From positions 1 to 15,635 of the forward strand of contig JAEZQX010000395.1 of NCBI GenBank assembly GCA_023441105.1: a stretch of DNA of 15,635 nucleotides, in the 5' to 3' direction. The notes beneath the pieces were generated by a model. That model was not told the DNA's origin and ran no database searches. It saw nothing but the letters and a program-made list of their open reading frames with translations. The position numbers were made by a program, and so were the translations under genes. Position 1 is the first letter of the stretch, and each line of letters starts with the position of its first letter. The DNA is from Pseudomonadota bacterium (GTDB lineage: Bacteria > Pseudomonadota > Gammaproteobacteria > Burkholderiales > Burkholderiaceae). Below, piece by piece: positions 1-15,635 of this stretch.

Positions 1-9
1 TATACGCCG

Positions 10-2249: not shown

Positions 2250-2251
2250 CC

Positions 2252-2274
2252 GGGGCCGGCCCCCCGTGCCGGGG
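2252..2274. terminator. GC-rich hairpins between convergent genes, possible terminator
   Basis: The 27-nt gap between the convergent GST gene and the ABC binding-protein gene holds a perfect 12-nt palindrome (GGGGCCGGCCCC, 2252-2263). It also holds a hairpin CCCCG-TGC-CGGGG at 2262-2274. Neither is followed by a T-run on either strand, so this is not a canonical intrinsic terminator. It could still stall polymerase from both sides. Confidence 0.35.
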
Positions 2275-2276
2275 CG

Positions 2277-3494
2277 TCAATCCTTCATCTTGCAGTCCTG
2301 CACGTAGGCATCGCCGTGCATCTTGAGCAGCGGCTCGCCGAGGGTCTTGTTGATCAGGCGGCCCTTGGCATCCTTGGTGACCACGCGCAGGTAGTAGTTC
2401 TGGATCGGGAACTGGTTGACGTTGAACTTCAGGTCGCCACGCACCGACTTGAAGTTGGCCTTCTGCAGCGCCCGGCGCAGCGCCTTCTTGTCGGTCAGGT
2501 TGCCTTTGACGTCGCGCACCGCCGCGTCGATCATCAGCGCGGTGTCGTAGCCCTGGGCGGCGAACACCGACGGCAGCCGGCCGTACTCCTTTTCGAAGGC
2601 GGCGACGAACTTGCGGTTGGCATCGTTGTCGAGGTCCATCGCCCAGTGGGCGGTGTCGAAGATGCCGGCCATGGCGTCGCCCACCGGCCGGATCACGTCC
2701 TGGTCGGAGCCGAAGCCGGGGGTCAGCAGCTGGGTGTCCTTGGACAGCCCGGCCCCGACGAACTGCTTGATGAAGTTGATGCCCATGCCGCCGGGCAGGA
2801 AGATGTACAGCACCTCCGGCTTGGCGGCACGGATGGCGGCGATCTCCGCGGCGTAGTCGAGCTGGCCCAGGTTGGTGTAGACCTCGTTGACCACCGTGCC
2901 CTTGTACATGCGCTTGAAGCCGGCCAGCGAATCCTTGCCCGCCTGGTAGTTGGGCGCCAGGAGGTAGACGTTCTTGAAGCCCTTGTTGGTGGCGTACTGG
3001 CCGGCAGCCTCGTGATAGGCGTCGTTCGGCCAGGCGGAAGCGAAGAAATAAGGGTTGCAGCTCTTGCCGGCCAGCGGCGACGGCGCGGCGTTCGGGCTGA
3101 TGTAGATGGTCTCGCTGCGAAAGGCCTCCTGGATGCCGGCCATCAGCACGTTGGAGAACACGACGCCGGTGAGGAAGTCGACCTTGTCGCGCTTGACGTT
3201 CTTCTCGAACAGCTGCTTGCCGACGTCCGGCTTGAACTGGTCGTCGCTGATCAGCACCTCCGCCGGCAGGCCGCCGAGCTTGCCGCCGTTCATCTTCACC
3301 GCCAGCATGAAGGCGTCGCGGATGTCCACCCCGAGGCTCGCGGACGGACCCGACAAGGTGCTGACGAAGCCCACCTTGACCGCGTCGGCCGCCGTTGCCG
3401 GCTGCATCAGGCCCAGTGCGCCCAGCAGCGCCGCCGCGACTGCCGCCTTCGGCAACAGCTGGTTCCTGGCTTCGTTCCGCATGTCCTTACGCAT
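2277..3494 (-). CDS. Periplasmic ABC substrate-binding protein, LivK/branched-chain amino acid type
   Basis: 405-residue secreted binding protein of the Leu/Ile/Val-binding (type I periplasmic) family. The N-terminus has a basic stretch, a hydrophobic core (AAVAAALLGALGL) and a likely cut after ATA at residue 35. The mature start VKVGFVSTLSGPSASLG is the usual first strand and ligand-binding loop. The Cys pair of the family lies in the second half. The GTG/ATG choice is settled by GGGGAG seven bases before the ATG at 3494; an inner ATG (3482) lacks proper spacing. No permease or ATPase genes are adjacent, so it must use transporter parts encoded elsewhere. It lies 94 nt behind the dioxygenase beta gene on the same strand. 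In betaproteobacteria such proteins next to aromatic catabolic genes often bind aromatic acids, so the dioxygenase substrate is a reasonable ligand guess (inference). Confidence 0.88.
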   Translation of the reverse strand: MRKDMRNEARNQLLPKAAVAAALLGALGLMQPATAADAVKVGFVSTLSGPSASLGVDIRDAFMLAVKMNGGKLGGLPAEVLISDDQFKPDVGKQLFEKNVKRDKVDFLTGVVFSNVLMAGIQEAFRSETIYISPNAAPSPLAGKSCNPYFFASAWPNDAYHEAAGQYATNKGFKNVYLLAPNYQAGKDSLAGFKRMYKGTVVNEVYTNLGQLDYAAEIAAIRAAKPEVLYIFLPGGMGINFIKQFVGAGLSKDTQLLTPGFGSDQDVIRPVGDAMAGIFDTAHWAMDLDNDANRKFVAAFEKEYGRLPSVFAAQGYDTALMIDAAVRDVKGNLTDKKALRRALQKANFKSVRGDLKFNVNQFPIQNYYLRVVTKDAKGRLINKTLGEPLLKMHGDAYVQDCKMKD

Positions 3495-3588
3495 GGCTCA
3501 GCTCCCCGATGAGTATTTTTCGTGCCGCCGATTATGCCGCCGCGGCGTTCGCGCGCAAGCGGCGTTTCCCCGACCCGTCCCGCCGCGC

Positions 3589-4260
3589 TCAGACCCAGGC
3601 CTGCAGCACGTACTCGTAGGCCGCCTGGGCATTCATCATGTCCACCCGCTGCAGCCGGATGCGCAGGCCATCGGCCGTGCGGACCAGCTGGTGCCGGTAG
3701 GTGCCGCCGAAATGCCGGACTTCATCGCGGCGCATCTCCATCATCTGGAAGCGCGAGTAGACCGTGAGCGACTGCAGGCCGTCGCCGCCGCCGGTGGCCT
3801 CGGGAGCGGCGACCGACTCGATCACCAGGTTCGACACCAGGTGGTTCGTGCCCCACAGCGCCGCCTGCGACCAGGCATTGGGATGATTGAGCCGGCCCAT
3901 GCGGATCTCCATCATCAGCTTGTCCTCGGCAAAGATGGATGGCTCCGACAGCCAGTCGTTCTGGCTCGGCTGCACCGGCATCCAGTAGATGCCGTCGTCG
4001 GTGAACAGGTCGATCCACTCCTGCCAGCGGCGCGCGTCGAGCAGCGCCGCCTGCCGGTACAGCAGGTCCTCGACCTCCTCGCGCAGCCGCCCGTTGGTCC
4101 CGGCGGCGAGCGGCACCGAAGGCCGCGGCACATACATCGTCGGCAGCTCCGCCCCGCGTCCGCGGTGGTTCGGGGCGATCGAGTCGGCGCCGGTCAGCGA
4201 TTCGACCGCCTCGATCACCACGCTCTTGCCCAGCGCCTGCTCCACGTGTTTTCGTTCCAT
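3589..4260 (-). CDS. Ring-hydroxylating dioxygenase, small (beta) subunit
   Basis: 223-residue beta subunit of a Rieske non-heme iron dioxygenase, an NTF2/scytalone-dehydratase-like fold that packs under the catalytic alpha subunits. The family core begins near residue 57 (EVEDLLYRQAALLDARRWQEW) and runs through DLFTDDGIYWMPV, an Arg-rich central part and the closing YRHQLVRT and LRIRLQRVDMMNA segments. The ATG at 4260 lies 14 nt after the alpha stop and has GGAG nine bases upstream. This start gives about 55 residues before the core, more than usual. An inner ATG at 4137 (MYVPRPS) also has GGAG eight bases upstream and would give a standard-sized protein of 182 residues. The gene is certainly coupled to the alpha gene; the exact start is less certain. 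Confidence 0.9.
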   Translation of the reverse strand: MERKHVEQALGKSVVIEAVESLTGADSIAPNHRGRGAELPTMYVPRPSVPLAAGTNGRLREEVEDLLYRQAALLDARRWQEWIDLFTDDGIYWMPVQPSQNDWLSEPSIFAEDKLMMEIRMGRLNHPNAWSQAALWGTNHLVSNLVIESVAAPEATGGGDGLQSLTVYSRFQMMEMRRDEVRHFGGTYRHQLVRTADGLRIRLQRVDMMNAQAAYEYVLQAWV

Positions 4261-4274
4261 GTCCAAACTCCGTC

Positions 4275-5567
4275 TCAGGCCGCTGAGAGATATTCGCGCC
4301 AGGCGCGGAACTGGTTGCGCATCACGACTTCGGAAGTGCCGTTGTTCGAATAGAGCACGCCGTCCTTCTCGGTGTCGCCGCCCATGTTGCGGTGAAAGCT
4401 CACCCAGTCGCCGCCGCGTGACTGCAACCCGTTCTGGCCGCGCGTCCAGTTCTCCAGGTCGTCGGCGTTGACCATCGTGGCCGGCGAATTGACGAGGTTG
4501 AAGTACCACAGCGAGCGCCGGTAGATCGCCTCCGGCACGCCCTTGAGGCGGAAGTGCCAGATCTCCGACAGGGTGCGGTCTGCCGAGATCGGCCGCAGGC
4601 AGCGCAGCTGCTGCAGCGGCGACTGCACCGACAGGTACGGGTAAACCAGCACGTGGTGGATGCTGCGCGACAGGTACTCCTCGGCCTGCTGCTCGCCGTA
4701 GGCCTGCTTGAGCAACGCCTCGTGCTCGAGCGTGTCGGGATCGGTCGGGCGCAGACCCATGTAGGCCTGCAGGATTCCGTGGCCGCGCGGCAGGTTGATG
4801 GTCTGCACCGAATCCCACTGCGAGAAGCTCGACGCGAAGCTCGACAGGTAGTGCAGATAGAGCGGCGCCTTGCCCTCCTTCTCCTTGACCCGCTGCTCGA
4901 CCCGCCGGGCCGGCACGCCGGTGGACTGGTGGGTGACCGAGGGATGCAGCGCGTCGAGCTGGTTCTCCATGAAGAACTTCCAGTTGGACCGCTGGATGAC
5001 CCGATGGCAGACCGGCACCACCTCCACTTCGCCCACCGGCGAGCGATCGCACATGTCGTCGAACGCCACCTTGGCGTCGCCGAGGAATTCCAGCAGGCTC
5101 GGTCCCTCCGGGTCCAGGCTGGCGAACACGAAGCCGCGGTAGCTGTCGACGCGAGCCGCCGCCTTCATGCTGCAGTCGGGATTGTCGGTGTTCAGGCGCG
5201 TGCCGTCATAGCCCTGCTTGAGGGGGATCGCCCGCACCCGGCCGTCGAGGTTGAAGCTCCAGGCGTGGTACGAGCAGACGAAGGCGTTGCCGGTGTTGCC
5301 CTTCTGGTTGCCGCACACCTGCACCCCGCGGTGCGGGCAGCGGTTGTAGAGCACGTGGATGCCGTTGTCGCGGTTGCGCACCATCAGCATCGGCTGGCGC
5401 CCGATGGTGACGGCGTGGTAGTCGCCCGGATTGGGCACCTGCGAGACATGCCCGCAGTAGATCCAGATGCGCTCGAAGATCGTGCGCATCTCGAGCTCGA
5501 AGATTTCCGGATCGGTGTAGCACCGGCGATGCACGCGGTCGGGTTCAACCAGTTGATCGAGATCCAT
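4275..5567 (-). CDS. Ring-hydroxylating dioxygenase, large (alpha) catalytic subunit
   Basis: 430-residue Rieske dioxygenase alpha subunit, which adds O2 to an aromatic ring as a cis-diol or hydroxylates it. The Rieske [2Fe-2S] ligands are C77-P-H79 and C98-S-Y-H101. The bridging and mononuclear-iron site is in the NWKFFMEN segment, with D205, H208 and H213; the third iron ligand is probably D369 or D370 in NADDLENW. Length is normal. I place the start at 5567 (MDLDQLVEPD), preceded by AGAGGCAGGAG. An upstream in-frame start at 5618 would add 17 unconserved residues. The beta gene follows 14 nt later, and a LysR gene diverges upstream. No ferredoxin or reductase gene is in the window. The motifs do not fix the substrate; a benzoate/anthranilate/terephthalate/salicylate-type acid is likely because a ligase and an acid-type binding protein lie nearby (inference). 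Confidence 0.95.
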   Translation of the reverse strand: MDLDQLVEPDRVHRRCYTDPEIFELEMRTIFERIWIYCGHVSQVPNPGDYHAVTIGRQPMLMVRNRDNGIHVLYNRCPHRGVQVCGNQKGNTGNAFVCSYHAWSFNLDGRVRAIPLKQGYDGTRLNTDNPDCSMKAAARVDSYRGFVFASLDPEGPSLLEFLGDAKVAFDDMCDRSPVGEVEVVPVCHRVIQRSNWKFFMENQLDALHPSVTHQSTGVPARRVEQRVKEKEGKAPLYLHYLSSFASSFSQWDSVQTINLPRGHGILQAYMGLRPTDPDTLEHEALLKQAYGEQQAEEYLSRSIHHVLVYPYLSVQSPLQQLRCLRPISADRTLSEIWHFRLKGVPEAIYRRSLWYFNLVNSPATMVNADDLENWTRGQNGLQSRGGDWVSFHRNMGGDTEKDGVLYSNNGTSEVVMRNQFRAWREYLSAA

Positions 5568-5696
5568 TGCTCCTGCCTCTGACGGGTGGTGGATCGGCGT
5601 CCGCGGGTGACGCCGCAACGATCGACTGTAGACCAGCGGCCGAGCGCTGACCAGTACTTGGCGACGGCATCCGGGAATCCGCTAACTGCCTTTTCC

Positions 5697-5711
5697 ATAA
5701 CCGTCGGTTAT
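5697..5711. promoter_or_regulatory. Perfect inverted repeat, candidate LysR-regulator operator
   Basis: ATAACC-GTC-GGTTAT is a perfect dyad with 6-bp arms. Its core 5698-5710 fits the LysR-family T-N11-A box. It lies in the 154-nt divergent gap between the dioxygenase alpha gene and the lysR gene, ending 10 nt before the lysR start. That position suits autorepression of lysR plus control of the divergent dioxygenase operon. A TATAGA hexamer (5709-5714) overlaps its right arm. I could not settle -35/-10 pairs for either gene. Confidence 0.6.
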
Positions 5712-5721
5712 AGACTGCGGC

Positions 5722-6618
5722 ATGGATTACCGCCACATCCTCCACCTCGCCACCGCCGCGCGCAGCGGCAGCCTGACGGCGGCCGCGGCGGAGCTCGGCA
5801 TCTCGCAGCCGGCCCTCTCCAAGAGCATCGGGGCGTTCGAGCGGGCCGTCGGCGTGCCGCTCCTGGAGCGCGGCCGCTTCGGCGTGCGCCCCACCCGCTA
5901 CGGCGAAGCGGTGATCGCGCGCGGCAGCGTCATCGAGGCCGAGATCCGCGGCGTCGCCGCCGAGATTGCCGCCATGCGCCGGACCGCGCATGTCCGGGTG
6001 ACCATCGGCTGCGGCCCGTCCGAAGCTACCCGGCTGCTGCCGCAGACGCTGGCCGCGATGCGGCGCAGCCATCCCGAGATGCGGGTCACCGTCCTCTACG
6101 GCCTCAACGAAACGCTGATGCCGATGGTCAAGAAAGGCGAGATCGAATTCGCCCTCTCGTCGGTGCCGCGGACGGCCTCGGATCCGGACCTTGCCCACCA
6201 GGTACTGCACGCCGATTCGGCGGCGGTGATCGCCAGGCCTGACCATCCGCTCGCCCAGCGCCGGCATCTGGTGCCGGCGGACCTGCTCGGCCAGCGCTGG
6301 GTGCTCGCCCGCCGCCGCGAGCTCGAGCGGCGCGCGCTCGACGAGCTGTTCCTCGATGCCGGCTTCAAGCCGGTGGAGGCGGAGATCGAGACCACCTCCT
6401 CGGTGCTGCTGAAGACGCTGGTGATGCAGGGCGAGTACCTGAGCTTCCTGCCGCGGGAGCTGATCCACTGGGAGGAGCAGGCCGGGCAGCTGACCGTGCT
6501 GGCAGTGGACGCCCCACCCTGGGAGCGGCTGGTCGGCATCACCGCCCGGCGCCGCGGCACGCTGACCAGCGCCGCCAAGACGCTGGTCAAGGCGTTGAAG
6601 GAGCAGTGCGCGCGCTGA
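5722..6618 (+). CDS. LysR-family transcriptional regulator
   Basis: 298-residue LysR-type regulator. The winged HTH spans about residues 1-60, with the recognition region LTAAAAELGISQPALSKSI near 17-35 followed by PLLERG. The periplasmic-binding-protein-like effector domain runs from about 90 (VRVTIGCGPSEATRLLP) to the end. It is divergent from the dioxygenase operon and is therefore its likely activator, responding to an aromatic substrate or intermediate. The ATG at 5722 puts the HTH at the usual distance from the N-terminus. There is no Shine-Dalgarno sequence (upstream is TATAGACTGCGGC), so initiation may be from a very short or leaderless transcript. The perfect dyad just upstream suggests autoregulation. 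The effector is not readable from the sequence. Confidence 0.93.
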   Translation: MDYRHILHLATAARSGSLTAAAAELGISQPALSKSIGAFERAVGVPLLERGRFGVRPTRYGEAVIARGSVIEAEIRGVAAEIAAMRRTAHVRVTIGCGPSEATRLLPQTLAAMRRSHPEMRVTVLYGLNETLMPMVKKGEIEFALSSVPRTASDPDLAHQVLHADSAAVIARPDHPLAQRRHLVPADLLGQRWVLARRRELERRALDELFLDAGFKPVEAEIETTSSVLLKTLVMQGEYLSFLPRELIHWEEQAGQLTVLAVDAPPWERLVGITARRRGTLTSAAKTLVKALKEQCAR

Positions 6619-6623
6619 GCCGC

Positions 6624-6654
6624 GCAGCCGGCGCCGGCGGGCGCCGGCCGCTGC
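6624..6654. terminator. Large GC-rich hairpin between convergent lysR and enolase-like genes
   Basis: GCAGC and CCGGCGCC pair with GGCGCCGG and GCTGC around a short loop, with a small bulge on the right arm. The structure fills most of the 54-nt convergent gap. On the plus strand it is followed by AAAAG, not T's; on the minus strand the TTTT precedes it. It is a stable barrier but not a textbook intrinsic terminator, and may act for both genes. Confidence 0.4.
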
Positions 6655-6672
6655 AAAAGACCAGGACGCCGC

Positions 6673-7965
6673 TCAGGCAGTGCTGCCGGGCATCCAGGAA
6701 CAACCGGCGAAGCGCGCGCTGCTGCCGAGCGCCTGCTCGATGCGGATCATCTCGTTCCACTTGGCCATCCGCTCCGAGCGCGAGAACGAGCCCACCTTGA
6801 ACTGGCCGGCGTCCCAGCCGACCGCCAGATGGGCGATGGTCAGGTCCTCGGTCTCGCCGGAGCGGGCCGAGACGATGGTGCCGAGGCCCGCCGCCTTGGC
6901 GGCGGCCAGCGCCGCCCGGGTTTCGGTGACGGTGCCGGCCTGGTTGACCTTGATCAGGGCCGCATTGACGCTGCGATCGGCGGCGGCCTGCGCGATGCGG
7001 CCGGCATTGGTGACCAGGAAGTCGTCGCCGATCACCTGGACCTTGTCGCCGACCGCCGCGGTAAAACGCTGCAGGCCGACGGGATCGTCCTCCGCGAGCG
7101 GATCCTCGATCGAGACGATGGGATAGCGCCGGCACCAGCCGGCAAGCAGCTCGCCGAGGCCGTCGCTGTCGAGCTCGCGCGACTCCAGCCCCAAGCGGTA
7201 GCGGCCGTTGGCGCCGAACTCGGAGGCGGCGATGTCGAGAGAGATGGCGACGTCGCTGCCCGGCGCGAAGCCGGCAGCTTCGATCGCCCGTACCAGCGTC
7301 TCGATCGCCTCCTCGTTGCTGTCGAACACCGGCCAGTAGCCGCCTTCGTCGGCGACGCCCTGGCGCTTGCCGGCGTCGGCCATCAGGCGGCCCGCGGCCA
7401 GGTAGACCTCGGCCGTCATCTCGAGCGCCTGCTCGAACGACCTGGCGGCGACGGCCATCACCATCAGGTCCTGGATGTCGATGCGGCGACCGGCATGCGC
7501 GCCGCCGCCGAAGATCTGGATCTCCGGCATCGGCAGGCTCACCGGCGCCCCGTCGGCGAGGTACTGCCAAAGCGGCACGCCGGCGCTCGCGGCGGCCGCA
7601 TGCAACGTGGCGATCGAGACCGCCACGACGGCATTGCCGCCAAGGCGCGACTTGGCCGGCGTGCCGTCGAGCTTGATCAGGCGCTCGTCGATGGCGGCCT
7701 GCTCCGAGGCGTCCATGCCGATCAGCGCCGGCGCGATCTCCTGCGCGATGCCGGCCAGGGCCTCCTTAACGTCCTGGCCGCCCAGCCGCGAGCCGCCGTC
7801 GCGCTTGTCGATCGCCTCGCGCGAGCCGCGCGAGGCGCCGGCCGGCGCGATGCCGCGGCCGACGCTGCCGTCGTCGAGCCAGACCTCCGCCTCGATCGTC
7901 GGCCTTCCGCGCGAATCCCAGATCCGCCGGCCATAAACTTCCACGATTTCACTGCTACGTATCAC
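6673..7965 (-). CDS. Enolase-family protein, divergent paralog with altered active site
   Basis: 430-residue full-length enolase homolog; enolase interconverts 2-phosphoglycerate and phosphoenolpyruvate. Metal ligands D244, E287 and D314 are present, as are general acid/base residues E207 (DEGGY) and K339 (ALIKVNQ), plus K390, H157, R368 and S369. Three conserved positions differ. The SHRSGETED motif reads SARSGETED (A367 for yeast H373). QEFM is QDLM (D166 for yeast E168). The mobile loop PSGASTG is PAGASRG. I checked the A367 (GCC) and D166 (GAC) codons in the DNA. The start is GTG and overlaps the upstream kinase stop (GTGA), so the two are translationally coupled. The genomic setting is not the usual housekeeping one. 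It is most likely an enolase-related hydratase/dehydratase on another phosphorylated hydroxy acid, or an impaired enolase; glycolytic enolase is less likely. Confidence 0.88.
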   Translation of the reverse strand: MIRSSEIVEVYGRRIWDSRGRPTIEAEVWLDDGSVGRGIAPAGASRGSREAIDKRDGGSRLGGQDVKEALAGIAQEIAPALIGMDASEQAAIDERLIKLDGTPAKSRLGGNAVVAVSIATLHAAAASAGVPLWQYLADGAPVSLPMPEIQIFGGGAHAGRRIDIQDLMVMAVAARSFEQALEMTAEVYLAAGRLMADAGKRQGVADEGGYWPVFDSNEEAIETLVRAIEAAGFAPGSDVAISLDIAASEFGANGRYRLGLESRELDSDGLGELLAGWCRRYPIVSIEDPLAEDDPVGLQRFTAAVGDKVQVIGDDFLVTNAGRIAQAAADRSVNAALIKVNQAGTVTETRAALAAAKAAGLGTIVSARSGETEDLTIAHLAVGWDAGQFKVGSFSRSERMAKWNEMIRIEQALGSSARFAGCSWMPGSTA

Positions 7966-9008
7966 GCTGTTCGACTCCAGTATTCGGCGATCTCGGCCAG
8001 GCGCCGGGCCGGCTGCACGAGAAAACGGCCGGCGGCCTCGCGTACGGCCTGCCGGCGCGGTTCATCAGTCAGGTATTCCACCGGCGACTTGCCGTCGATC
8101 CGCGCCAGCCACAGCCCGGGCAGCAAGGCGGCGCAGCGCGCTTCGAAGGCGTCCGCCGGCTCCCAGTCAACGGTAGCCAGATAGGACTGCGAAAGGCGCT
8201 CGAAACAGGCAAGGTACCGGGCCTTCCATTGTGGCTGCCAGGAACCCTTCAGCAACAGGTGATTCAGACAGAAGGCGAGATCGAAGGCCGGATCGCCGTA
8301 CCAGGCGCATTCCGCATCGAGGAAGATCGGGCCGGCGGGTCCGCGCAGGATGTTCTTCGGGCTGATGTCGCCGTGCACCAGCGCCAGCCGGGTGGCCAGG
8401 GTGGTCGCTGCCAGTTGCTCCAGCCGCTCTGCCAGTGCCGGATGGCGCGCGGCCGTGGCGCGCAGGTAGGGTTCGATACGGATCGGCTCGAAGGTCGCGT
8501 CGTTGGCGAACTGCGCCGCGAGGTCCGTCCGGCGGGCGCTGCGGCCATGGATCAGCGCGAGCCGCGAGCCGACCTCGGCGGCGAAGTCGCCGTCGATCTC
8601 GCCGTCGCGCAGCTGGTTCTTCCAGACGGGATAGTCCTGCGGCGGCAGGTACTCCATCGCGAACATGCCCTGCGCCGGATCCTCGCCCAGCAACCGCGGA
8701 ACGCTGTCGGGCAACCAGCCTCCGACCGTCCTGAGCCAGGCTGCCTCGGCGGCATTGCGTTCGACCGGCGCCTCCCACAGCGCGGCGACCTTGAGCCGGG
8801 GCAGCGCCCGCTTGAGGCAGAAGCGGCGACCGGCGGCTTCCGCCAGCAGGATGTCCGAGGACACGCCGCCGGCGAGCGGCTGGAACCGCGGCACCTCGCC
8901 CTGCGCCACCAGGCCGAGCTTGCGCAGCGACTCCACCAGCTCCCCGAGCCTCTCGATCGGTGGCTGCAACCCCGCCTGCGCGCCGGTGGGCGTGATGTCG
9001 TCATTCAT
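7962..9008 (-). CDS. APH/choline-kinase-fold small-molecule phosphotransferase
   Basis: 348-residue member of the phosphotransferase enzyme family (aminoglycoside phosphotransferase, choline kinase, methylthioribose kinase fold). Visible parts are a glycine-rich loop (AGGVSSDILL, 46-55), the ATP-binding lysine K66 (FCLKRAL), and the hinge FAMEYLPP near 116-123. The catalytic loop is HGDISPKN (H212, D214, N219), and the metal-binding D231 lies in FLDAECAWYGDPAFDLAF. All catalytic residues are intact. It should phosphorylate a hydroxyl on a small metabolite; the family does not fix which. The stop overlaps the GTG of the enolase-like gene by 4 nt, and the RES toxin ends only 24 nt upstream. That suggests this kinase makes the phosphorylated substrate of the enolase paralog (inference). 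The start ATG has AAGGG about ten bases upstream. Antibiotic resistance is possible by fold but not supported by context. Confidence 0.85.
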   Translation of the reverse strand: MNDDITPTGAQAGLQPPIERLGELVESLRKLGLVAQGEVPRFQPLAGGVSSDILLAEAAGRRFCLKRALPRLKVAALWEAPVERNAAEAAWLRTVGGWLPDSVPRLLGEDPAQGMFAMEYLPPQDYPVWKNQLRDGEIDGDFAAEVGSRLALIHGRSARRTDLAAQFANDATFEPIRIEPYLRATAARHPALAERLEQLAATTLATRLALVHGDISPKNILRGPAGPIFLDAECAWYGDPAFDLAFCLNHLLLKGSWQPQWKARYLACFERLSQSYLATVDWEPADAFEARCAALLPGLWLARIDGKSPVEYLTDEPRRQAVREAAGRFLVQPARRLAEIAEYWSRTA

Positions 9009-9032
9009 GGCGGCTCATCCCTTCGTCCCTGC

Positions 9033-9770
9033 TCATCCTGCCATCTCCTCCGGACCATCGGTCTGCTGGTAGACGCCCGAGAACCGCATTCCGTCCCAGG
9101 CGTACAGCAGGTAGGCCGCATGGACGCAGTTGCGCGCGGCCTTCGGCTTGAACAACCCGGCGCACTGGCCGCCGCGATGGCGGGCACTGCGGTAGGCAAC
9201 GCCATTCGAGCCGCCGGCGCGCAAGGCGGCGCCCACCTGCCGCGACTGGGCATAGCTCTCCGGATCGTCGATGCGCGCGTCGACCACGCCGTCGAGCCGC
9301 AGGTCATGCAGCCTGGCGTCGATGTCCACATGGTAGAGGCGCATGGGCAGGTGCATCGAGCCTTCGCCGGTGGCTGCGAGGAACCGGCCATGGTGGTAGC
9401 GGGTCTCGGCGATGGCGGTCGCGCGCTCCTTGCCGGCATAGAAGACGCCATAGCTGCCATCCGAGAAACGGCTGCCCTGGGGGTTGAGATGGGTGAAGGC
9501 AGCCATGATCGGCCCGCTCCCCGGTCCCAGCAGCCGGTCCTGCGGCGCGACCAGCTCGATCTTGCCGACTTCGTCGCGGATGCGGTCGTTGGTCAGCGCC
9601 TCCCGCGCATAAAGCGCCTCGAAGTCCTCCGGATCCGCCACCCGATCGAAAAGAAACACGCTCGGATAGCGGGTCGGGACGATGCGGAAGGCGGGCTGCC
9701 AGCGGATCCGGCGTAGCGGGACCCGTGCCATCCACGGCGGGTCCGGCTCGCCGGCCGGGTGAGCAGTCAC
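9033..9770 (-). CDS. RES-domain toxin (NAD+-degrading type) of a type II toxin-antitoxin pair
   Basis: 245-residue RES-family protein. Characterised relatives such as MbcT and Xre/RES toxins deplete NAD+. The domain is recognised from FRIVPTRYP (28-36), GSRFSDGSYGVFYAG (99-113, with R101), TAIAETRYH (118-126, with E122), and GVAYRSARHRGGQCAGLF (190-207, with S195). R101, E122 and S195 are my candidates for the Arg-Glu-Ser set that names the family. I chose the GTG at 9770, which overlaps the antitoxin stop as GTGA, the usual coupling in these pairs. An ATG at 9731 would give 232 residues and also keeps the whole domain. The reading frame stays open further upstream across the antitoxin gene, but that part is a shadow. 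A phosphotransferase gene follows after 24 nt without an intervening hairpin. Confidence 0.87.
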   Translation of the reverse strand: MTAHPAGEPDPPWMARVPLRRIRWQPAFRIVPTRYPSVFLFDRVADPEDFEALYAREALTNDRIRDEVGKIELVAPQDRLLGPGSGPIMAAFTHLNPQGSRFSDGSYGVFYAGKERATAIAETRYHHGRFLAATGEGSMHLPMRLYHVDIDARLHDLRLDGVVDARIDDPESYAQSRQVGAALRAGGSNGVAYRSARHRGGQCAGLFKPKAARNCVHAAYLLYAWDGMRFSGVYQQTDGPEEMAG

Positions 9771-10180
9771 GACCAGCCGCCGCCGCGGGCCGCATCCAGG
9801 TAGCGGCGCACGGCGTTGAGATCGCTGACGTTGCCGGCCAGCATCCGCTCGAGTGCGGACCGCCCGCCGAACATCGCTGCCGCGTTCGGCTTGCGGACCC
9901 AGGCGTCCGCGACCGCCGGGTCGGGAAACAGGATCTGCAGCGCCTTGTAGATGCCCAGCAGATTGGAAATCCGCTCGAGCGTATCGCGCGGCAAGCTGGC
10001 GCGTTCCGGATGCTTGCGCCAGGCGAAGAAGGTGGACCGGGCCGGCTCGCCCAGCAGCGCCAGCTGCTCCTCGATGCTCAGGCCCCACAAGGCGGCGATA
10101 CGGGTGAAGGCGCGGACGCCGGCCGCGCTCATCTGGGCGAGACCGGGCTCGTTGGCGGCTTCTTCGGCGCGCGTGGTCAT
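9767..10180 (-). CDS. MbcA/ParS/Xre-type antitoxin (DUF2384)
   Basis: 137-residue antitoxin partner of the RES toxin. The N-terminal part holds an Xre-like helical DNA-binding region (FTRIAALWGLSIEEQLALLG, about 25-44, then STFFAWRK). The C-terminal DUF2384 region has the signature LPRDTLERISNLLGIYKAL, then AWVRKPN and FGGRSALERMLAG, ending in the family-typical RRYLDAARGG tail, which in homologs caps the toxin active site. I chose the ATG at 10180. A TTG seven codons further upstream is in frame but has no ribosome-binding site. The stop overlaps the toxin GTG. It probably represses its own promoter through the dyads just upstream. Confidence 0.87.
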   Translation of the reverse strand: MTTRAEEAANEPGLAQMSAAGVRAFTRIAALWGLSIEEQLALLGEPARSTFFAWRKHPERASLPRDTLERISNLLGIYKALQILFPDPAVADAWVRKPNAAAMFGGRSALERMLAGNVSDLNAVRRYLDAARGGGWS

Positions 10181-10221
10181 GATATTCGGCTCAGGCGGCA
10201 AAGCGTGCGGGTTAATCCTGA

Positions 10222-10235
10222 TTTAGACTTATAAA
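10222..10235. promoter_or_regulatory. AT-rich imperfect dyad at the predicted transcription start
   Basis: TTTAGACTTATAAA has 4-bp perfect outer arms (TTTA/TAAA) and partial inner symmetry, and lies over the predicted +1 of the antitoxin operon. It could be a second operator half-site for the antitoxin. It is short and AT-rich, so it could also be chance. Confidence 0.3.
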
Positions 10236-10237
10236 CC

Positions 10238-10266
10238 ACCATAGTCCATTCCAGGACTGCTGTCAA
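10238..10266 (-). promoter_or_regulatory. Sigma70-like promoter of the toxin-antitoxin / kinase / enolase operon
   Basis: On the minus strand a consensus -35 TTGACA (10266-10261) is followed after exactly 17 nt by TATGGT (10243-10238, four of six matches to TATAAT). The predicted start of transcription is near 10231, leaving about 50 nt of leader before the antitoxin ATG. The -35 begins only 11 nt beyond the lacI stop. It is the clearest promoter in the window. Confidence 0.7.
10243..10258. promoter_or_regulatory. Inverted repeat between -35 and -10, candidate antitoxin operator
   Basis: AGTCC-ATTCCA-GGACT is a perfect 5-bp-arm dyad lying almost wholly in the 17-nt spacer of the promoter, where a bound repressor would block RNA polymerase. 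The neighbouring antitoxin is the natural candidate to bind it. Confidence 0.5.
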
Positions 10267-10277
10267 ATTGCCGATGC

Positions 10278-11297
10278 TCAGGCGGTGGCGCGCCGGACGA
10301 CTTCGTAGCCGAGGTCGATATTGCGCTTTGGCGGGCCGCTGCTGCCGGTTGCCCGGGCGAGCAGCGACTCCGCCGCCACCACGCCCATGCGATAGCCCGG
10401 CACGCGGACCGTGGTGAGGGCGGGCGTGGCGATCGAGGCGATGTCGAAGTCGCCGAAGCCGACGACCGCCACCTCCTCCGGCACCCGCCGCCCTGCCTCG
10501 CGCGCCACCTGCAGGAAGCCGCAGGCCAGCAGGTCGTTGGCGCAGAAGACGGCGTCGATGGGCGGGTCCTGCTGCAGCAGCCGCCGCGCCGCGGCGCGCG
10601 CCTGCTCGATGACCATGCCGTTGTCCACCAGGGCGTCGACCGGCCGAGCCAGGCCGGCCTCCTGGGCGCCGCGCCGGAAGCCCTCCCGCCGCTTGCGCGA
10701 GCGATGCTCGCCGTCGCTGCCGATGAAGGCAAGCCGGCGCCGGCCATCGGAGGCAAGCAGCAGGCCGACCGTCCGGCCCGCGCTGCGGTTGGAGAAGCCG
10801 ACGCAGATGTCGAGCGGGTCGCGGGTGACGTCCCAGATTTCCGCGACCGGCACGCGGTGCGCGGCAACCAGGCCGCGGATCCCGGCATCATGCTCGACAC
10901 CGGTCAGCACCAGCGCATCGACGCCGCGGGCGATGAAGGCCTCGACCAGCGATCGCTCGTTGCGCGTGTCGTAACCGCTGTCGCCGAGCATCAGCTCGAA
11001 GCCGGCGCCGCGCAATCCGTCGGACAGGCCCTGCAAGGTGCCGGCATAGACGGAGAACGACAGCGTCGGCACCACGGCGGCGACGATGCGGCTGCGGCGG
11101 GAGGCCAGCGACCGGGCGCTGCCGTTGGGCAGGTAGCCGAGCGCGTCGATCTTCGCCCGGATCCGCTCGAGGGTTCGCGGATCGAGGCGGTGCGGCTCGC
11201 GCAGGGCCCGCGACACGGTCATCGCCGACACGCCGGCGGCGGCGGCGACGTCCGCCAGCCGCGGGCGCGCGCCGGATGGTGCGTCGTTCCTTGACAT
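10278..11297 (-). CDS. LacI-family transcriptional repressor, GntR (gluconate)-like
   Basis: 339-residue LacI/GalR-family regulator. The HTH is LADVAAAAGVSAMTVSRAL (14-32), followed by the hinge YLPNGSARSLASRRS (55-69) and a sugar-binding-type effector domain (VVPTLSFSVYAGTLQG, LDICVGFSNRSAGR, DAVFCANDLLACG, EEVAVVGFGDFDIA). The effector domain resembles E. coli GntR, for instance in the PLDICVGF and FCANDLLA segments as I recall them. This points to a sugar acid or similar hydroxy acid as inducer (inference). I chose the ATG at 11297, which has GGGGA eight bases upstream. Two upstream in-frame starts (11306, 11342) would add unconserved residues, and the longer one reads through the operator. 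It is divergent from the oxygenase-TRAP operon, which it probably represses. Confidence 0.92.
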   Translation of the reverse strand: MSRNDAPSGARPRLADVAAAAGVSAMTVSRALREPHRLDPRTLERIRAKIDALGYLPNGSARSLASRRSRIVAAVVPTLSFSVYAGTLQGLSDGLRGAGFELMLGDSGYDTRNERSLVEAFIARGVDALVLTGVEHDAGIRGLVAAHRVPVAEIWDVTRDPLDICVGFSNRSAGRTVGLLLASDGRRRLAFIGSDGEHRSRKRREGFRRGAQEAGLARPVDALVDNGMVIEQARAAARRLLQQDPPIDAVFCANDLLACGFLQVAREAGRRVPEEVAVVGFGDFDIASIATPALTTVRVPGYRMGVVAAESLLARATGSSGPPKRNIDLGYEVVRRATA

Positions 11298-11317
11298 GCA
11301 GGCCATCCCCGGATAAT
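11291..11317 (+). promoter_or_regulatory. Candidate promoter of the oxygenase-TRAP operon
   Basis: TTGACA (11291-11296) matches the -35 consensus, and GATAAT (11312-11317) matches five of six -10 bases, with a spacer of 15 nt, shorter than ideal. The predicted start of transcription would fall just before or in the LacI-type operator, the normal arrangement for repression. The -35 overlaps the lacI start codon on the other strand. Confidence 0.45.
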
Positions 11318-11327
11318 TTGCCGTCGA

Positions 11328-11341
11328 TGTTAGCGCAAACA
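11328..11341. promoter_or_regulatory. LacI-family operator (near-palindrome around GCGC)
   Basis: TGTTAGC-GCAAACA is a 14-bp dyad whose halves match at six of seven positions (the perfect partner of TGTTAGC is GCTAACA). It has the central CG of LacI/GalR-family operators. It lies between the divergent lacI and oxygenase genes, 30 nt from the lacI ATG and 18 nt from the oxygenase ATG, just after the candidate promoter. The neighbouring repressor is the obvious ligand. Confidence 0.65.
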
Positions 11342-11359
11342 CCGGCAGGAACGACAGCG

Positions 11360-12259
11360 ATGCAGCAGGCCATCCGGACCATCGGCGACCGCGACGTCGC
11401 CTTCTATCGCGAGCACGGCTACCTGGTCGTGCGCGACGTGCTGGACGCGGGCCAGCTCGAGACGCTGCGCGAGGCGGTGGCGCAGCTGCTGGCCGGCGCG
11501 CACGGCGTCACCGGCAACACCGATCTCTACGACCTCGAGGACAGCCACAAGCCCGAGGCGCCGCGCGTGCGCCGGCTCAAGCTGCCGCATCGCAACCACC
11601 CCGCCTTCGGCGCGCTGATCCGCTCCGAAGCCGTGCTGCGGCTGATGAGGCCGCTGCTCGGGGACAGCATCCGGCTGCAGACGTCCAAGCTCAACCTCAA
11701 GTCGGCGGGCTACGGCGCCCCGGTGGAGTGGCACCAGGACTGGGCCTACTACCCGTACACCAACCAGGACGTGCTCGCGGTCGGCGTGCTGCTCGACGAT
11801 TTCACCGAGGACAACGGCGCGATGATGGTGGTGCCCGGCAGCCATCGCGGCCCGGTCTACGACCATCATTCCGCCGGCCGCTTCTGCGGCGCGATGGACC
11901 CGACCGTGACCGGCTTCGATGTCAGCCAGGCGATCAAGCTGATCGCGCCCGCCGGCTCGATCACCCTGCATCACGCGCGCACGGTCCACGGATCGGCGCC
12001 GAACACCTCCGGCGCATCGCGCAACTTCCTGCTCTACGAGGCGATGGCGGCGGATGCCTGGCCGCTGGCAGGCACCTTCGCGCCGTTCTCCGACCTCGAG
12101 GAATTCAACAGCCGGCTCCTGTGCGGCGAGGCCACCCTGCAGCCGCGGCTGGAGGCGGTGCCGGTGCGCATCCCGCTGCCCAAGCCGCTGGACCCGTCGT
12201 CGCTCTACCAGGCGCAGAAGGGACTCGGCAACCGTTATTTCGAGCCGGTGAACGCCTGA
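11360..12259 (+). CDS. Phytanoyl-CoA dioxygenase (PhyH) family Fe(II)/2-oxoglutarate oxygenase
   Basis: 299-residue cytosolic oxygenase with the double-stranded beta-helix of the PhyH family. These enzymes hydroxylate a substrate C-H bond while decarboxylating 2-oxoglutarate. The iron facial triad is H125-x-D127 (EWHQDWAYYP) and H210 (HARTVHGSAPN). R221 (SGASRNFLLYE) is the likely 2-oxoglutarate-binding arginine. I chose the ATG at 11360 because AGGA lies nine bases upstream. The longer in-frame starts at 11276 and 11327 would put the operator and promoter inside the gene. The TRAP genes follow after 86 nt, so the enzyme probably acts on the imported compound. Family members act on very different molecules (phytanoyl-CoA, ectoine, phosphonates, amino acids), so the substrate is open. 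Confidence 0.9.
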   Translation: MQQAIRTIGDRDVAFYREHGYLVVRDVLDAGQLETLREAVAQLLAGAHGVTGNTDLYDLEDSHKPEAPRVRRLKLPHRNHPAFGALIRSEAVLRLMRPLLGDSIRLQTSKLNLKSAGYGAPVEWHQDWAYYPYTNQDVLAVGVLLDDFTEDNGAMMVVPGSHRGPVYDHHSAGRFCGAMDPTVTGFDVSQAIKLIAPAGSITLHHARTVHGSAPNTSGASRNFLLYEAMAADAWPLAGTFAPFSDLEEFNSRLLCGEATLQPRLEAVPVRIPLPKPLDPSSLYQAQKGLGNRYFEPVNA

Positions 12260-12345
12260 CGCCGGCGCGGGACGCAGCAGGCCCGGCGGCCTGCGCATCG
12301 CTTCGCGGCCGCTGTGCCGCATCCGAAAACACGAGGAGACTGGGC

Positions 12346-13335
12346 GTGAGACACCCGAAAAAAACGAGGCTCGCCGCTTTGGCCTGCGGGCTGCTGCTGC
12401 CGCTGCTTCCCCTGGGCGCGACGGCGCAGACGACGTTGACCCTGGGCGGATCGGACTCCATCGGCACCACCATCGACCGCGGCAACGCCTTGTTCGCCAA
12501 GCTGGTCAACGAGCGCGCCGGCGGCAAGCTCAAGATCAACTTCATCCAGGGCGAGCAGCTCGGCAACGACGTCCAGGTCATCGAGCAGATGATGAAGGGC
12601 TCGGTGCAGGTCTACGGCGACGTGCTCGACTGGTACGCCAATTGGGTCAAGGACTTCGCGATCTTCGCCTGGGGCTTCACCTTCCGGGACAACGACCATT
12701 TCCAGCAGTTCCTCGAATCCGACACTTTCCGCAAGATGTCGGAGGAGCTGCGCAACAAGCAAGGCATCCGCATCCTCGCCAGTGCGCCGACACAGCCGCG
12801 GGTGCTGTTCGCCAAGCGCCCGGTCAACGCGCCCGACGATCTCAAGGATCTCAAGATGCGCGTGCCGGAGATCAAGACCTACCTCAACCTCTGGAGCACG
12901 CTCGGCACGCGGCCGTCGCGCGTCGCCTGGGCGGAAGTCTTCCTCGGCCTCAAGACCGGCGTCATCGACGCAGCGGAAGGTCCGATCTCCTCGGCCTACG
13001 GCGCGAAGTTCCACAACGCCGCCAGCAACATGATGCGCACCGACCACCTGGTCTCGTCGCAGCACATCACCATGAACGAGAAGGCCTTCCAGGCGCTGTC
13101 GCCGGAGCTGCAGAAGATCGTCATCGAAGCGGCGCAGGAGTCGGTGGCCTGGGGTCGCAAGGAAGCGGAGAAGGAAACCGAGGAGCTGACGGCGAAGATC
13201 GCGTCCGAAGGGGCCAAGGTGATCAAGCCCGAGCGCGGACCGTTCGCCGAGAAGGCCATCGCCGCGGTCCAGAAGATGGAAGAGGACGGCGCCTGGAGCC
13301 CGGGACTGTGGCAGAAGATCCGCGACCTCAAGTAG
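12346..13335 (+). CDS. dctP: TRAP transporter periplasmic solute-binding protein DctP
   Basis: 329-residue secreted binding protein of a tripartite ATP-independent periplasmic transporter. A signal peptide (KKTR, then LAALACGLLLPLLPLG, likely cut after ATA at residue 27) precedes the mature domain. Family features include the ligand-carboxylate-binding arginine in LKMRVPE (R172), a second arginine in QPRVLFAK (R152), and the LKTGVIDAAEGP segment (202-213) that replaces the usual LQTGVVDGQENP. The start is GTG at 12346, chosen for GAGGAG seven bases upstream and because it begins the signal peptide. The frame stays open far upstream, but that is a shadow of the oxygenase gene. The small membrane subunit gene begins at the very next base after the stop. 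The conserved arginine suggests an organic-acid ligand (known for the family); identity is unknown. Confidence 0.95.
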   Translation: MRHPKKTRLAALACGLLLPLLPLGATAQTTLTLGGSDSIGTTIDRGNALFAKLVNERAGGKLKINFIQGEQLGNDVQVIEQMMKGSVQVYGDVLDWYANWVKDFAIFAWGFTFRDNDHFQQFLESDTFRKMSEELRNKQGIRILASAPTQPRVLFAKRPVNAPDDLKDLKMRVPEIKTYLNLWSTLGTRPSRVAWAEVFLGLKTGVIDAAEGPISSAYGAKFHNAASNMMRTDHLVSSQHITMNEKAFQALSPELQKIVIEAAQESVAWGRKEAEKETEELTAKIASEGAKVIKPERGPFAEKAIAAVQKMEEDGAWSPGLWQKIRDLK

Positions 13336-13905
13336 ATGTCTGATCCGCTCGCCGCCAGCTGGCGGCTGTTGCGCGCCCTCGGCACGCTCGAGCGCGCTGC
13401 CTGCGTGGTGCTGCTGGCCGGCATCGTGATCTCCATCACGGTGCAGATCGTCACCCGCTACCTGTTCGGGCAGCCGCTGGTCTGGGTGGAGGAAGCCGCC
13501 GGCTACTCGTTCATCTGGGTGGTATTCCTCGGCGCCGCCGCCGGCTTCAAGGAGCTGCGCCACATCCGCATCGACACCTTCGTGAGCCGGATGCGGCCCC
13601 GGCCGCAGAACCTGATCCGGGCAGCACTCTACGCCCTGTGCACGCTGCTGATGCTGATGGTCGCCTGGTATGCGTGGGAGATCATGGACGTCGAGGCGCG
13701 CAGCAGCACCATGGCGCTGCCGGTCGAGCTGCCGCGGCATCTGTTCTATTCCGTGCCGCTGTTCGCGAGCACCCTGTCGATCGCCCTCACCGGCGCCTGG
13801 CTGGTCGCCGCCTGCATCGCCCATGCCGTCGCCGGCCGTCCCATCGATGCCGAGCTCGACGTGATCGAGCGGCGCCGCCTCGACGAAGAACTGCTCAACC
13901 ACTGA
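13336..13905 (+). CDS. dctQ: TRAP transporter small membrane subunit DctQ
   Basis: 189-residue inner-membrane protein with four hydrophobic segments, near residues 20-38 (ACVVLLAGIVISITVQIV), 55-70 (YSFIWVVFLGAAAGF), 96-115 (ALYALCTLLMLMVAWYAWEI) and 136-160 (LFYSVPLFASTLSIALTGAWLV). Between the second and third lies the family motif FKELRHIRIDTF. The charged C-terminal tail (ERRRLDEELLNH) is cytoplasmic. The ATG directly abuts the dctP stop (TAGATG), so translation is coupled. It bridges the binding protein and DctM in the sodium- or proton-driven importer. Confidence 0.93.
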   Translation: MSDPLAASWRLLRALGTLERAACVVLLAGIVISITVQIVTRYLFGQPLVWVEEAAGYSFIWVVFLGAAAGFKELRHIRIDTFVSRMRPRPQNLIRAALYALCTLLMLMVAWYAWEIMDVEARSSTMALPVELPRHLFYSVPLFASTLSIALTGAWLVAACIAHAVAGRPIDAELDVIERRRLDEELLNH

Positions 13906-13956
13906 GCCGCGGCGATCCACCCGTCCACCGATGATGCACCTTCCGCCGGCCCGCCC

Positions 13957-15234
13957 ATGATCCTGCTGATGTTCGGCGTGATGTTCCTGCTGATCGCAGT
14001 GGAACTGCCGATCGCCTTCGCCCTCGTCGCCGCCGCGTTCTTCTACCTGCACACCGGCACCCAGATCCCGCCGTCGATCGTGGTGCAGCGCATGTCGACC
14101 GGCATCGACAGCTTTCCGCTGCTGGCGATCCCGCTGTTCGTGCTGGCCGGCAACCTGCTCAACTCCGGCGGCATCGCCCGGCGCCTGTTCGATTTCTCGA
14201 TCGCCTTGATCGGGCACATGCGCGGCGGTCTGGCCCAGGTCAACATCCTGGCAAGCCTGATCTTCTCCGGCATGTCGGGCGTGGCACAGGCCGACGCGGC
14301 CGGCCTCGGCACCGTCGAGATCAAGGCGATGAAGAGCGCCGGCTTCAATGCCTCGTTCGCCGCGGCCGTCAGCGCCTCGTCGGCGATCATCGGTCCGATC
14401 ATCCCGCCGTCGGTGATCATGGTGATCTACGGCGTGCTGGCCCAGGTGTCGGTCGGCGACCTGTTTCTGGCGGGCATCGTTCCCGGGGTCGTCATCGGCC
14501 TGCTGCTGATGCTCACCGTCTACATCCTGGTGGTGACCCGCACCGTGCATGCGCCGGTGCAGCCGCAGGCATCGGCGCTGGAATTGCGCCGGACCTTCTT
14601 CGCCGCCATCCCCCCGCTGATGGCGCCGATCATCCTCATGGGCGGCCTGCTGACCGGCGTGGCCACGCCCACCGAGCTGGGCGCGATCACCGTGGTCTAC
14701 GCGGTGATCCTCGGCTTCATCTATCGCGAGCTGACCTGGAAGATCCTGGTGCGGGCCATGTCCGAAACCGCCGTCGCGACCGGCGTGCTGGTGTTCATCA
14801 TGGCCGCCGCCGTGCCGATCGGCTGGGCGATCGCGGTCAACAACGTGCCGGCGCTGTTCGCCGGCTGGCTGCTGTCGATCACGCAGGAGCCGTGGGCGGC
14901 GCTGATGGTGATCAACATCATCCTGCTGATCGTCGGCTGCTTCATGGAGACGACCGCGATCCTGCTGATCGCCGTGCCGACGCTGCTGCCGCTGATCCTG
15001 CAGCTGGGCATCGATCCGGTGCAGTTCGGGCTGATCATGATCATCAACCTGCTCATCGGCGCGACCACCCCGCCGTTCGGCGTGCTGCTGTTCATCGTCC
15101 AGGACATCGCCCGGGTCAGCTTCGGCGAGATCGTGCGGGCGATGCTGCCGTTCTACGTCCCGCTGCTCCTCGCGCTGCTGCTGGTGACCTACTGGCCGTC
15201 GCTGTCGCTCTGGCTGCCGTCGATGATGAAGTAG
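13957..15234 (+). CDS. dctM: TRAP transporter large permease subunit DctM
   Basis: 425-residue polytopic inner-membrane protein, the ion-coupled transport channel of the TRAP system. The length is typical and there are about a dozen hydrophobic segments. Recognisable family stretches are PLLAIPLFVLAGNLLNSGG (about 54-72), SGMSGVAQADAAGLGTVEI, ASSAIIGPIIPPSVIMVIYG and GATTPPFGVLLF near the C-terminus. It is separated from dctQ by 51 nt and has no good Shine-Dalgarno sequence. A nine-codon ORF starting at 13931 ends in TGA overlapping this ATG and could couple translation. It completes a dctPQM set, so the transporter is likely functional. Confidence 0.95.
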   Translation: MILLMFGVMFLLIAVELPIAFALVAAAFFYLHTGTQIPPSIVVQRMSTGIDSFPLLAIPLFVLAGNLLNSGGIARRLFDFSIALIGHMRGGLAQVNILASLIFSGMSGVAQADAAGLGTVEIKAMKSAGFNASFAAAVSASSAIIGPIIPPSVIMVIYGVLAQVSVGDLFLAGIVPGVVIGLLLMLTVYILVVTRTVHAPVQPQASALELRRTFFAAIPPLMAPIILMGGLLTGVATPTELGAITVVYAVILGFIYRELTWKILVRAMSETAVATGVLVFIMAAAVPIGWAIAVNNVPALFAGWLLSITQEPWAALMVINIILLIVGCFMETTAILLIAVPTLLPLILQLGIDPVQFGLIMIINLLIGATTPPFGVLLFIVQDIARVSFGEIVRAMLPFYVPLLLALLLVTYWPSLSLWLPSMMK

Positions 15235-15240
15235 GCGATC

Positions 15241-15263
15241 GCCGGCCAGGGATCCCAGCCGGC
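15241..15263. terminator. Hairpin between convergent dctM and DUF1631-like genes
   Basis: GCCGGC pairs with GCCGGC over six base pairs, with a small mismatch and a short inner GG/CC stem around GAT. It sits just after the dctM stop, in the 46-nt convergent gap, and has no T-run. It is a weak or factor-dependent terminator candidate only. Confidence 0.35.
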
Positions 15264-15280
15264 AGTCCCACCGCCGAGGC

Positions 15281-15635
15281 TCAGCGGGCCTTCAACGATT
15301 CGATGGCGGCACCGGTCCGCGGAATCCGGCCGACCAGGCGGATGCGTCCTTCCGCCAGCAAGGCATTGAGCATCGGCCGGCGCACCGTCCAGTGATCGCG
15401 CGGGTAGCGCGAGAAGATGAAGACGCTGCGGCTCGGGCTCATCCAGCCGACCTTGAAGCGCTTGGCCTCGCCGGCGGTATCGGCGACCTCGACCTCGGAG
15501 CCATTGGTCAGGCCCAGTCGCGCCACCTCGTCGTCGAGTGGCATCGCCGGCGGGTCGTCGGCGACGGGCCTGGCGCCGGCATCGCGGGCGGACGCCGCGA
15601 CCGGCAGCGGCACCGATGGCGGCACCGGCTCCGGC
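15281..15635 (-). CDS. C-terminal part of a DUF1631-like protein (runs off window)
   Basis: About 117 residues are visible; the reading frame stays open to the window end, so the start lies outside. The visible part opens with a proline/alanine-rich linker (PEPVPPSVPLPVA), then a compact beta-rich domain. That domain has LGLTNGSEVEVADTAGEAKRF, KVGWMSPSRSVFIFSRYP and a closing ALLAEGRIRLVGRI. The pattern of a value-setting strand, a W-x-SP-x-R-x-x-F-x-F segment and a final L-x-x-G-R-x-R resembles the C-terminus of DUF1631 proteins, common in beta- and gammaproteobacteria with no firmly known role. Assignment is tentative. The GTG at 15625 is an internal valine codon rather than a start. Confidence 0.6.
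   Translation of the reverse strand, partial: PEPVPPSVPLPVAASARDAGARPVADDPPAMPLDDEVARLGLTNGSEVEVADTAGEAKRFKVGWMSPSRSVFIFSRYPRDHWTVRRPMLNALLAEGRIRLVGRIPRTGAAIESLKAR

What the first reader, a model, noticed from the sequence alone, without database searches (positions are those of the whole stretch)
6673..10266. Four-gene operon joining a Xre-RES toxin-antitoxin module to a kinase and an enolase paralog
Antitoxin, toxin, kinase and enolase are on one strand with gaps of -4, 24 and -4 nt and no hairpin between them, downstream of a single strong promoter. RES toxins consume NAD+, so accessory metabolic enzymes tied to the toxin could modify or detoxify its products, or replenish a metabolite. 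Alternatively, the toxin-antitoxin pair may have landed upstream of an existing metabolic pair and stabilises it.
Basis: partly seen in the sequence, partly recalled or inferred. Interest (0 to 1): 0.7.

Follow-up and report, generated by a model that had tools for sequence, protein, structure and literature searches.

The report
Toxin-antitoxin promoter leading kinase-enolase operon
In one bacterial lineage a toxin-antitoxin pair of a familiar kind sits, with its own probable switchable promoter, in front of an older and widespread two-enzyme metabolic unit, so enzymes of a still unknown pathway may have come under the control of a toxin thought to destroy NAD+.

Summary
In detail: Xre, RES, an APH-fold kinase and an enolase paralog lie on the minus strand with junctions of -4, +24 and -4 nt behind one promoter-like site. 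The kinase-enolase pair is an older unit: 73 of 80 kinase loci from genome contigs have the enolase next door, and RES was found within 1.5 kb in 0 of 80. Of 13 RES neighbourhoods read, 12 show neither kinase nor enolase. The exception, a Lautropia-like MAG, keeps all four genes in order with low dN/dS. Two palindromes in the Xre promoter, one perfect, recur upstream of other Xre-RES pairs (13 of 23 promoters score 9-10 of 10, against 0 of 79 kinase upstream regions), so the enzymes are probably under Xre-RES autoregulation; this is inferred. The enolase is unusual: 114 of 115 distinct relatives have Ala where 11 of 11 second copies have His. Its substrate is unknown. New variant of a known kind.

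The parts
10238..10266 (-). sigma-70-like promoter TTGACA-17-TATGGT
   Evidence: one site in 6500-11500 against 0.2 expected; TTGACA-17-TAGTGT at the same place in L180 (sequence printed, read by eye)
10243..10258 (-). perfect palindrome AGTCC-N6-GGACT in the promoter spacer, touching the -10 box; putative Xre-RES operator 1
   Evidence: 13 of 23 distinct Xre promoters score 9-10 of 10, 0 of 79 kinase upstream regions
10214..10229 (-). imperfect palindrome AGTCT-N6-GGATT, 29 nt downstream of the first; putative operator 2
9767..10180 (-). Xre/MbcA/ParS-type antitoxin, 137 aa
   Evidence: PF09722 2.2e-13, PF20432 3.6e-11; NCBIfam Xre_ParS_antitoxin only 22.1 bits, cut-off 90
9033..9770 (-). RES-domain toxin, 245 aa (GTG start, 4-nt overlap with the antitoxin)
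   Evidence: PF08808 2.2e-35; profile match to chain 8qnl (the NatT structure), 2.3e-5
7962..9008 (-). APH-fold small-molecule kinase, 348 aa; model closest to 5-methylthioribose kinase
   Evidence: PF01636 4.1e-19; model pLDDT 88.7; best fold matches 2pyw and 2pul, TM (query) 0.75-0.76, 17% identity
6673..7965 (-). enolase paralog with altered substrate-pocket residues, 430 aa
   Evidence: TIGR01060 473.2 bits, cut-off 300; site comparison
10278..11309 (-). LacI-family regulator upstream on the same strand (start codon not settled)
   Evidence: syntenic in L180
11276..12259 (+). PhyH-type dioxygenase, divergent from LacI; found near kinase-enolase in a few other loci

Best explanation
An intact-looking Xre-RES toxin-antitoxin pair, with its own probably autoregulated promoter, became the leader of an older, independent two-gene metabolic unit in a Lautropia-like betaproteobacterial lineage and has been kept there. 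Shown here: gene order, conservation in one relative, tandem palindromes in the promoter, and separate existence of the two halves elsewhere. Inferred: one transcript runs through all four genes; the Xre-RES complex binds the palindromes and represses it; when the complex shifts to its non-binding, active form (as described for NatR-NatT) RES cleaves NAD+ and the operon, kinase and enolase included, is derepressed. The pair itself probably makes an enol phosphate: the kinase phosphorylates a hydroxyl of a 2-hydroxy acid and the enolase-like enzyme eliminates water. D-glycerate to 2-phosphoglycerate to phosphoenolpyruvate is the simplest version, but the changed pocket argues for a bulkier or different acid.
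For: Pair is older: enolase next to the kinase (same strand, within 700 nt) in 73 of 80 genome-contig loci, RES within 1.5 kb in 0 of 80; in 58 loci of later searches, partly the same genomes, enolase adjacent in 58 and RES in 1. TA pair is separable: 12 of 13 RES neighbourhoods without kinase or enolase. Linkage kept: L180 is syntenic from AMP ligase to PhyH; dN/dS RES 0.105, Xre 0.118, kinase 0.209, enolase 0.117. Palindromes shared with unlinked Xre-RES pairs. P. putida Xre-RES represses its promoter through an imperfect repeat (PMC12204516: passages; section 7); transcription is coupled to toxin activity in NatR-NatT (PMC11535050: passages). Metabolic role: a cluster whose scanned representative is a 2-hydroxyacid dehydrogenase in 20 of the 85 loci L001-L085, and PEP carboxylase one gene away from the kinase on a Rhizobium plasmid.
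Against: No transcript or binding data. The motif was drawn from an alignment that included the window, so its shuffle values are partly circular, and 2 hits with up to 1 mismatch in the whole window are not unusual (34 of 200 shuffles have at least 2). 10 of 23 Xre promoters score 8 or less. Only one relative with the linkage could be read. Glycerate is weakened by the pocket changes. In RES, NatT N193 faces a gap and Y108 a His, so activity is not certain.
Confidence: 0.6

Rival explanations
1. The TA pair is only a passenger or addiction element: it inserted between LacI and the kinase, stabilises the catabolic cluster or merely persists, and does not regulate the enzymes, which have a promoter of their own inside RES.
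For: Plasmid relatives of RES are often on mobile replicons (80 of 154 plasmid records conjugative or mobilizable by PLSDB typing, all under 60% identity); the pair lives elsewhere without TA.
Against: The one promoter-like site in 6500-11500 is upstream of Xre, though the scan covers only sigma-70 consensus; 24-nt RES/kinase junction; L180 keeps the arrangement.
Confidence: 0.25
2. A true four-gene system in which kinase and enolase act on products of RES NAD+ cleavage (nicotinamide, ADP-ribose 1''-phosphate) or restore a depleted metabolite.
For: Linkage conserved in one relative with low dN/dS and probably in several metagenome contigs (contig lengths only).
Against: RES near the kinase in 0 of 80 loci; six genomes hold both genes on different contigs; 2-hydroxyacid dehydrogenase, ABC and TRAP neighbours point to carbon catabolism.
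Confidence: 0.06
3. The enolase copy is a plain glycolytic duplicate and the kinase an unrelated neighbour.
For: TIGR01060 equivalog score above cut-off; catalytic Lys, Glu and metal ligands kept.
Against: Split from 11 SHRSGETED-type enolases with support 0.999, His to Ala in 114 of 115 distinct relatives, near-constant adjacency to the kinase; 11 of 12 genomes searched also hold another, 45-49% identical copy.
Confidence: 0.07

Closest known systems
Xre-RES type II toxin-antitoxin systems (P. putida Xre-RES, P. aeruginosa NatR-NatT)
   Same: Antitoxin-toxin order, overlapping genes, both domains, repeats in the promoter; NatT R82, Y93, S184 and R186 have identical counterparts (chain numbering taken as paper numbering plus 13, my assumption)
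   Different: Leads a metabolic pair; NatT N193 faces a gap and Y108 a His; R23 and Y162 not compared; palindromes not compared with the P. putida sequence
Enolase (phosphopyruvate hydratase)
   Same: Whole-length match, catalytic Glu, Lys and metal ligands conserved
   Different: Ala for the His of SHRSGETED, GGG for NGG, Trp in DEGGxW; split from 11 SHRSGETED-type copies
5-methylthioribose kinase (APH fold)
   Same: Best fold match, TM 0.75-0.76; HGD and DxE invariant in the 37 rows of A2
   Different: 17% identity; NCBIfam MTRK 52.5 bits against a cut-off of 275; paired with an enolase
Kinase-enolase pairs of other bacteria (no name found in my searches)
   Same: Same two genes, usually kinase then enolase
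   Different: No Xre-RES in front

Membership tests
Xre-RES type II TA | RES toxin domain | tested here: met
   PF08808 122.4 bits, cut-off 23.2
Xre-RES type II TA | Xre/MbcA/ParS antitoxin directly upstream | tested here: met
   PF09722 and PF20432 above cut-off; 4-nt overlap; below the NCBIfam Xre_ParS cut-off
Xre-RES type II TA | Repeat operator in the promoter | tested here: inconclusive
   Two palindromes, at 9-10 of 10 in 12 of the 22 other distinct Xre promoters scored; binding not tested
Xre-RES type II TA | Active-site residues | tested here: inconclusive
   R101, Y111, S195, R197 align with NatT R82, Y93, S184, R186; N193 faces a gap, Y108 a His
Xre-RES type II TA | NAD+ cleavage and neutralisation by the antitoxin | not testable with these tools
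   needs an assay
Housekeeping enolase | Catalytic Lys and Glu, metal ligands | tested here: met
   K339, E207, D244, E287, D314 conserved in 115 of 115 distinct relatives; the roles of these sites are recalled
Housekeeping enolase | His of SHRSGETED (yeast H373, numbering recalled) | tested here: not met
   Ala here and in 114 of 115 distinct relatives; His in 11 of 11 second copies
5-methylthioribose kinase | NCBIfam equivalog cut-off | tested here: not met
   52.5 bits, cut-off 275
5-methylthioribose kinase | Fold | tested here: met

The most novel reading that the evidence does not exclude
Xre-RES has been recruited as an NAD+-linked transcriptional switch of a catabolic operon: the state of the toxin complex sets the supply of an enol phosphate made by a new kinase and a new enolase subfamily, tying a carbon pathway to NAD+ status.
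Probability: 0.15. Interest if true: 0.8.

Novelty: new variant of a known kind. Interest (0 to 1): 0.45.

Why it matters
It would give a physiological output to a RES-type system, whose role PMC11535050 calls unresolved (passage). Apart from that, it points to a widespread kinase-enolase pair with a changed enolase pocket, scored as ordinary phosphopyruvate hydratase by the annotation model, whose substrate is open and testable.

Tried and rejected
Own genome: none held. PDB by sequence: no match for the antitoxin. Papers: 7 searches listed none that I recognised as being on this pair; 'Xre-RES' with 'enolase' returned 0 papers. Only listings were seen, of open-licence papers; PMC4390880, which holds 'enolase paralog' once, was not opened. 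Papers looked into: PMC11535050 and PMC12204516 (passages; of the latter also section 7) and PMC5237310 (passages). Longest-ORF gene picking failed in GC-rich DNA and was replaced by a GC3-based pick, which still found the kinase in only 65 and the enolase in only 64 of 85 loci; two of its clusters (7 and 6 loci, minus strand) look like wrong-frame shadows of enolase and kinase and were not counted. Of the 2-hydroxyacid dehydrogenase cluster only one member was scanned.

Contig-length pairing: among the 120 kinases and 120 RES proteins listed I found by eye ten shared contig lengths. Six are distinctive (65158, 48921, 44033, 9488, 5575, 4298), two short ones plausible (2493, 2250), one discordant in identity (2445: kinase 93%, RES 73%) and one probably chance (1499). 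These contigs were not read. In the trees the putatively linked kinases fall in one clade with low basal support (0.354) together with unlinked or unknown ones; the RES proteins fall in two groups.

Misses and dropped rows: L032, L036, L055, L058, L064, L072, L083 lack an enolase within 700 nt on the same strand; of these L032, L055, L072, L083 have one further off, L036 and L064 end within 131 bases after the kinase, and L058 holds about 1.6 kb without one. 8 of the 80 loci hold less than 1.5 kb upstream of the kinase, and 4 of the 58 less than 1 kb. RES was sought by tblastn with the window protein (E up to 1e-20, 1e-5, 1e-3), so divergent RES could be missed. Weaker RES hits (E up to 1e-5) exist in five more kinase-bearing genomes (G009-G012, G016); the one in G016 lies on the kinase contig, about 4 kb beyond the enolase (L070). 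L099 and L114 are one place and were counted once; L100/L115, which begins just upstream of Xre, was not scored. The 139 enolase rows hold repeats from overlapping fetches: 115 are distinct. One search (4 genomes) found nothing.
Full report
Observation. The four genes, strands and junctions are as described. Pfam places them as Xre-type antitoxin, RES toxin, APH kinase and enolase. One promoter-like site (10266-10238) lies upstream and no terminator-like site was found in 6500-11500.

The kinase-enolase pair stands alone. The enolase is next to the kinase in 73 of 80 (71 downstream, 2 upstream) and RES was found within 1.5 kb in 0 of 80; 8 of the 80 hold less than 1.5 kb upstream. L070 has a 28% identical RES with an Xre about 4 kb beyond the enolase. 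In 58 loci from order and family searches, partly the same genomes, the enolase is adjacent in 58 and RES in 1. In the order sample 54 of 399 genomes carry the kinase at E up to 1e-60; in the family of G013, 38 of 74.

The TA pair stands alone. RES at E up to 1e-60 occurs in 14 of 300 genomes of the order, and at E up to 1e-80 in 3 of 74 of the family. Of 13 neighbourhoods read (10-19 kb each), 12 show no kinase or enolase. Five of those 14 genomes (G017, G133, G170, G183, G265), and G008, also carry the kinase, each on another contig. Five more kinase-bearing genomes have only weaker RES hits (E up to 1e-5); one of them, G016, is the L070 case.

The linkage is real in at least one lineage. 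In G417 (whose kinase is identical to P0008, named Lautropia sp.), L180 repeats AMP ligase, GST, ABC binding protein, dioxygenase beta and alpha, enolase, kinase, RES, Xre, LacI and PhyH; the LysR gene of the window was not detected there. The Xre/RES overlap is 4 nt there too and the RES/kinase gap 63 nt. dN/dS between window and L180: RES 0.105 (read from 9731), Xre 0.118, enolase 0.117, kinase 0.209, LacI 0.240, so toxin and antitoxin are under constraint. Metagenome proteins suggest more linked contigs by shared contig length, which is a proxy only.

The promoter. Upstream of Xre lie AGTCC-N6-GGACT (10258-10243), in the spacer and touching the -10 box, and AGTCT-N6-GGATT 29 nt further on. 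Of 23 distinct Xre promoters 13 score 9 or 10 of 10 on this motif; of 79 upstream regions of the kinase in the genome-contig loci none does. The consensus was drawn with the window included, and the hit count in the window as a whole is not unusual; it is the place and the recurrence that speak. P. putida Xre-RES represses its promoter through an imperfect inverted repeat (PMC12204516: passages; [quoted passage not shown] By inference the kinase and enolase are under the same control here.

The enzymes. The kinase model (pLDDT 88.7) is nearest to 5-methylthioribose kinases (TM 0.75-0.76, 17% identity), but misses that family's cut-off. The enolase keeps the catalytic residues. In 139 relatives of at least 55% identity, 115 of them distinct, the His of SHRSGETED is Ala in 114 of 115 and Gly in 1, the Asn before GG is Gly in 115, and the second residue after DEGG is Trp in 115; 11 of 11 second copies from the same set of genomes have His, Asn and Ala there. 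Of five further sequences under 55%, three (L003, L065, L179), all next to the kinase, also have the Ala; the other two, L005 and L212, are divergent at that motif. Of twelve genomes searched with the enolase, 11 hold a further copy of 45-49% identity, taken here as the housekeeping one; G417 showed only the paralog. The yeast His373 mutagenesis paper (Brewer et al. 1997) was seen only as a reference-list entry; the residue's role is recalled. A cluster whose scanned member is a 2-hydroxyacid dehydrogenase is the commonest further neighbour (20 of the 85 loci L001-L085). On one Rhizobium plasmid a PEP carboxylase gene, a dehydrogenase gene annotated 'C-terminal binding protein' and the kinase follow each other.

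Verdict. The combination is a lineage-specific joining of a known TA type to an older metabolic pair, probably with transfer of the promoter. The idea that the enzymes treat RES products is unlikely. The most novel reading left open is that Xre-RES now works as an NAD+-linked switch of the pathway.

Noticed in passing
L003, L065, L179: A more divergent enolase group (44-51% identical) lies upstream of the same kinase family and also has Ala for the active-site His.
   Followed up: partly
L005, 6193-16867: On an Enterobacter plasmid a 38% identical kinase sits beside a divergent enolase-like gene (motif AGRSIDSED) and a run with aminotransferase, peptidase and MFS transporter genes, which looks like a biosynthetic cluster.
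   Followed up: no
window 5722-6618 and L180 7249-7303: The window has a LysR gene between enolase and the ring-hydroxylating dioxygenase; in L180 it was not detected and the dioxygenase follows the enolase on the same strand.
   Followed up: partly
L110, just after the RES stop (10625 in reverse orientation): A 211-aa ORF starts about 4 nt before the RES stop ends in an unlinked Xre-RES locus; not identified.
   Followed up: no
window 1-15635: The setting looks catabolic: acyl-CoA ligase, GST, ABC binding protein, Rieske dioxygenase, LacI, PhyH, TRAP transporter.
   Followed up: partly
L013, L014, L019, L028: A cluster of FGGY carbohydrate kinases (one member scanned) lies just upstream of the APH kinase on the opposite strand in these 4 loci.
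   Followed up: no
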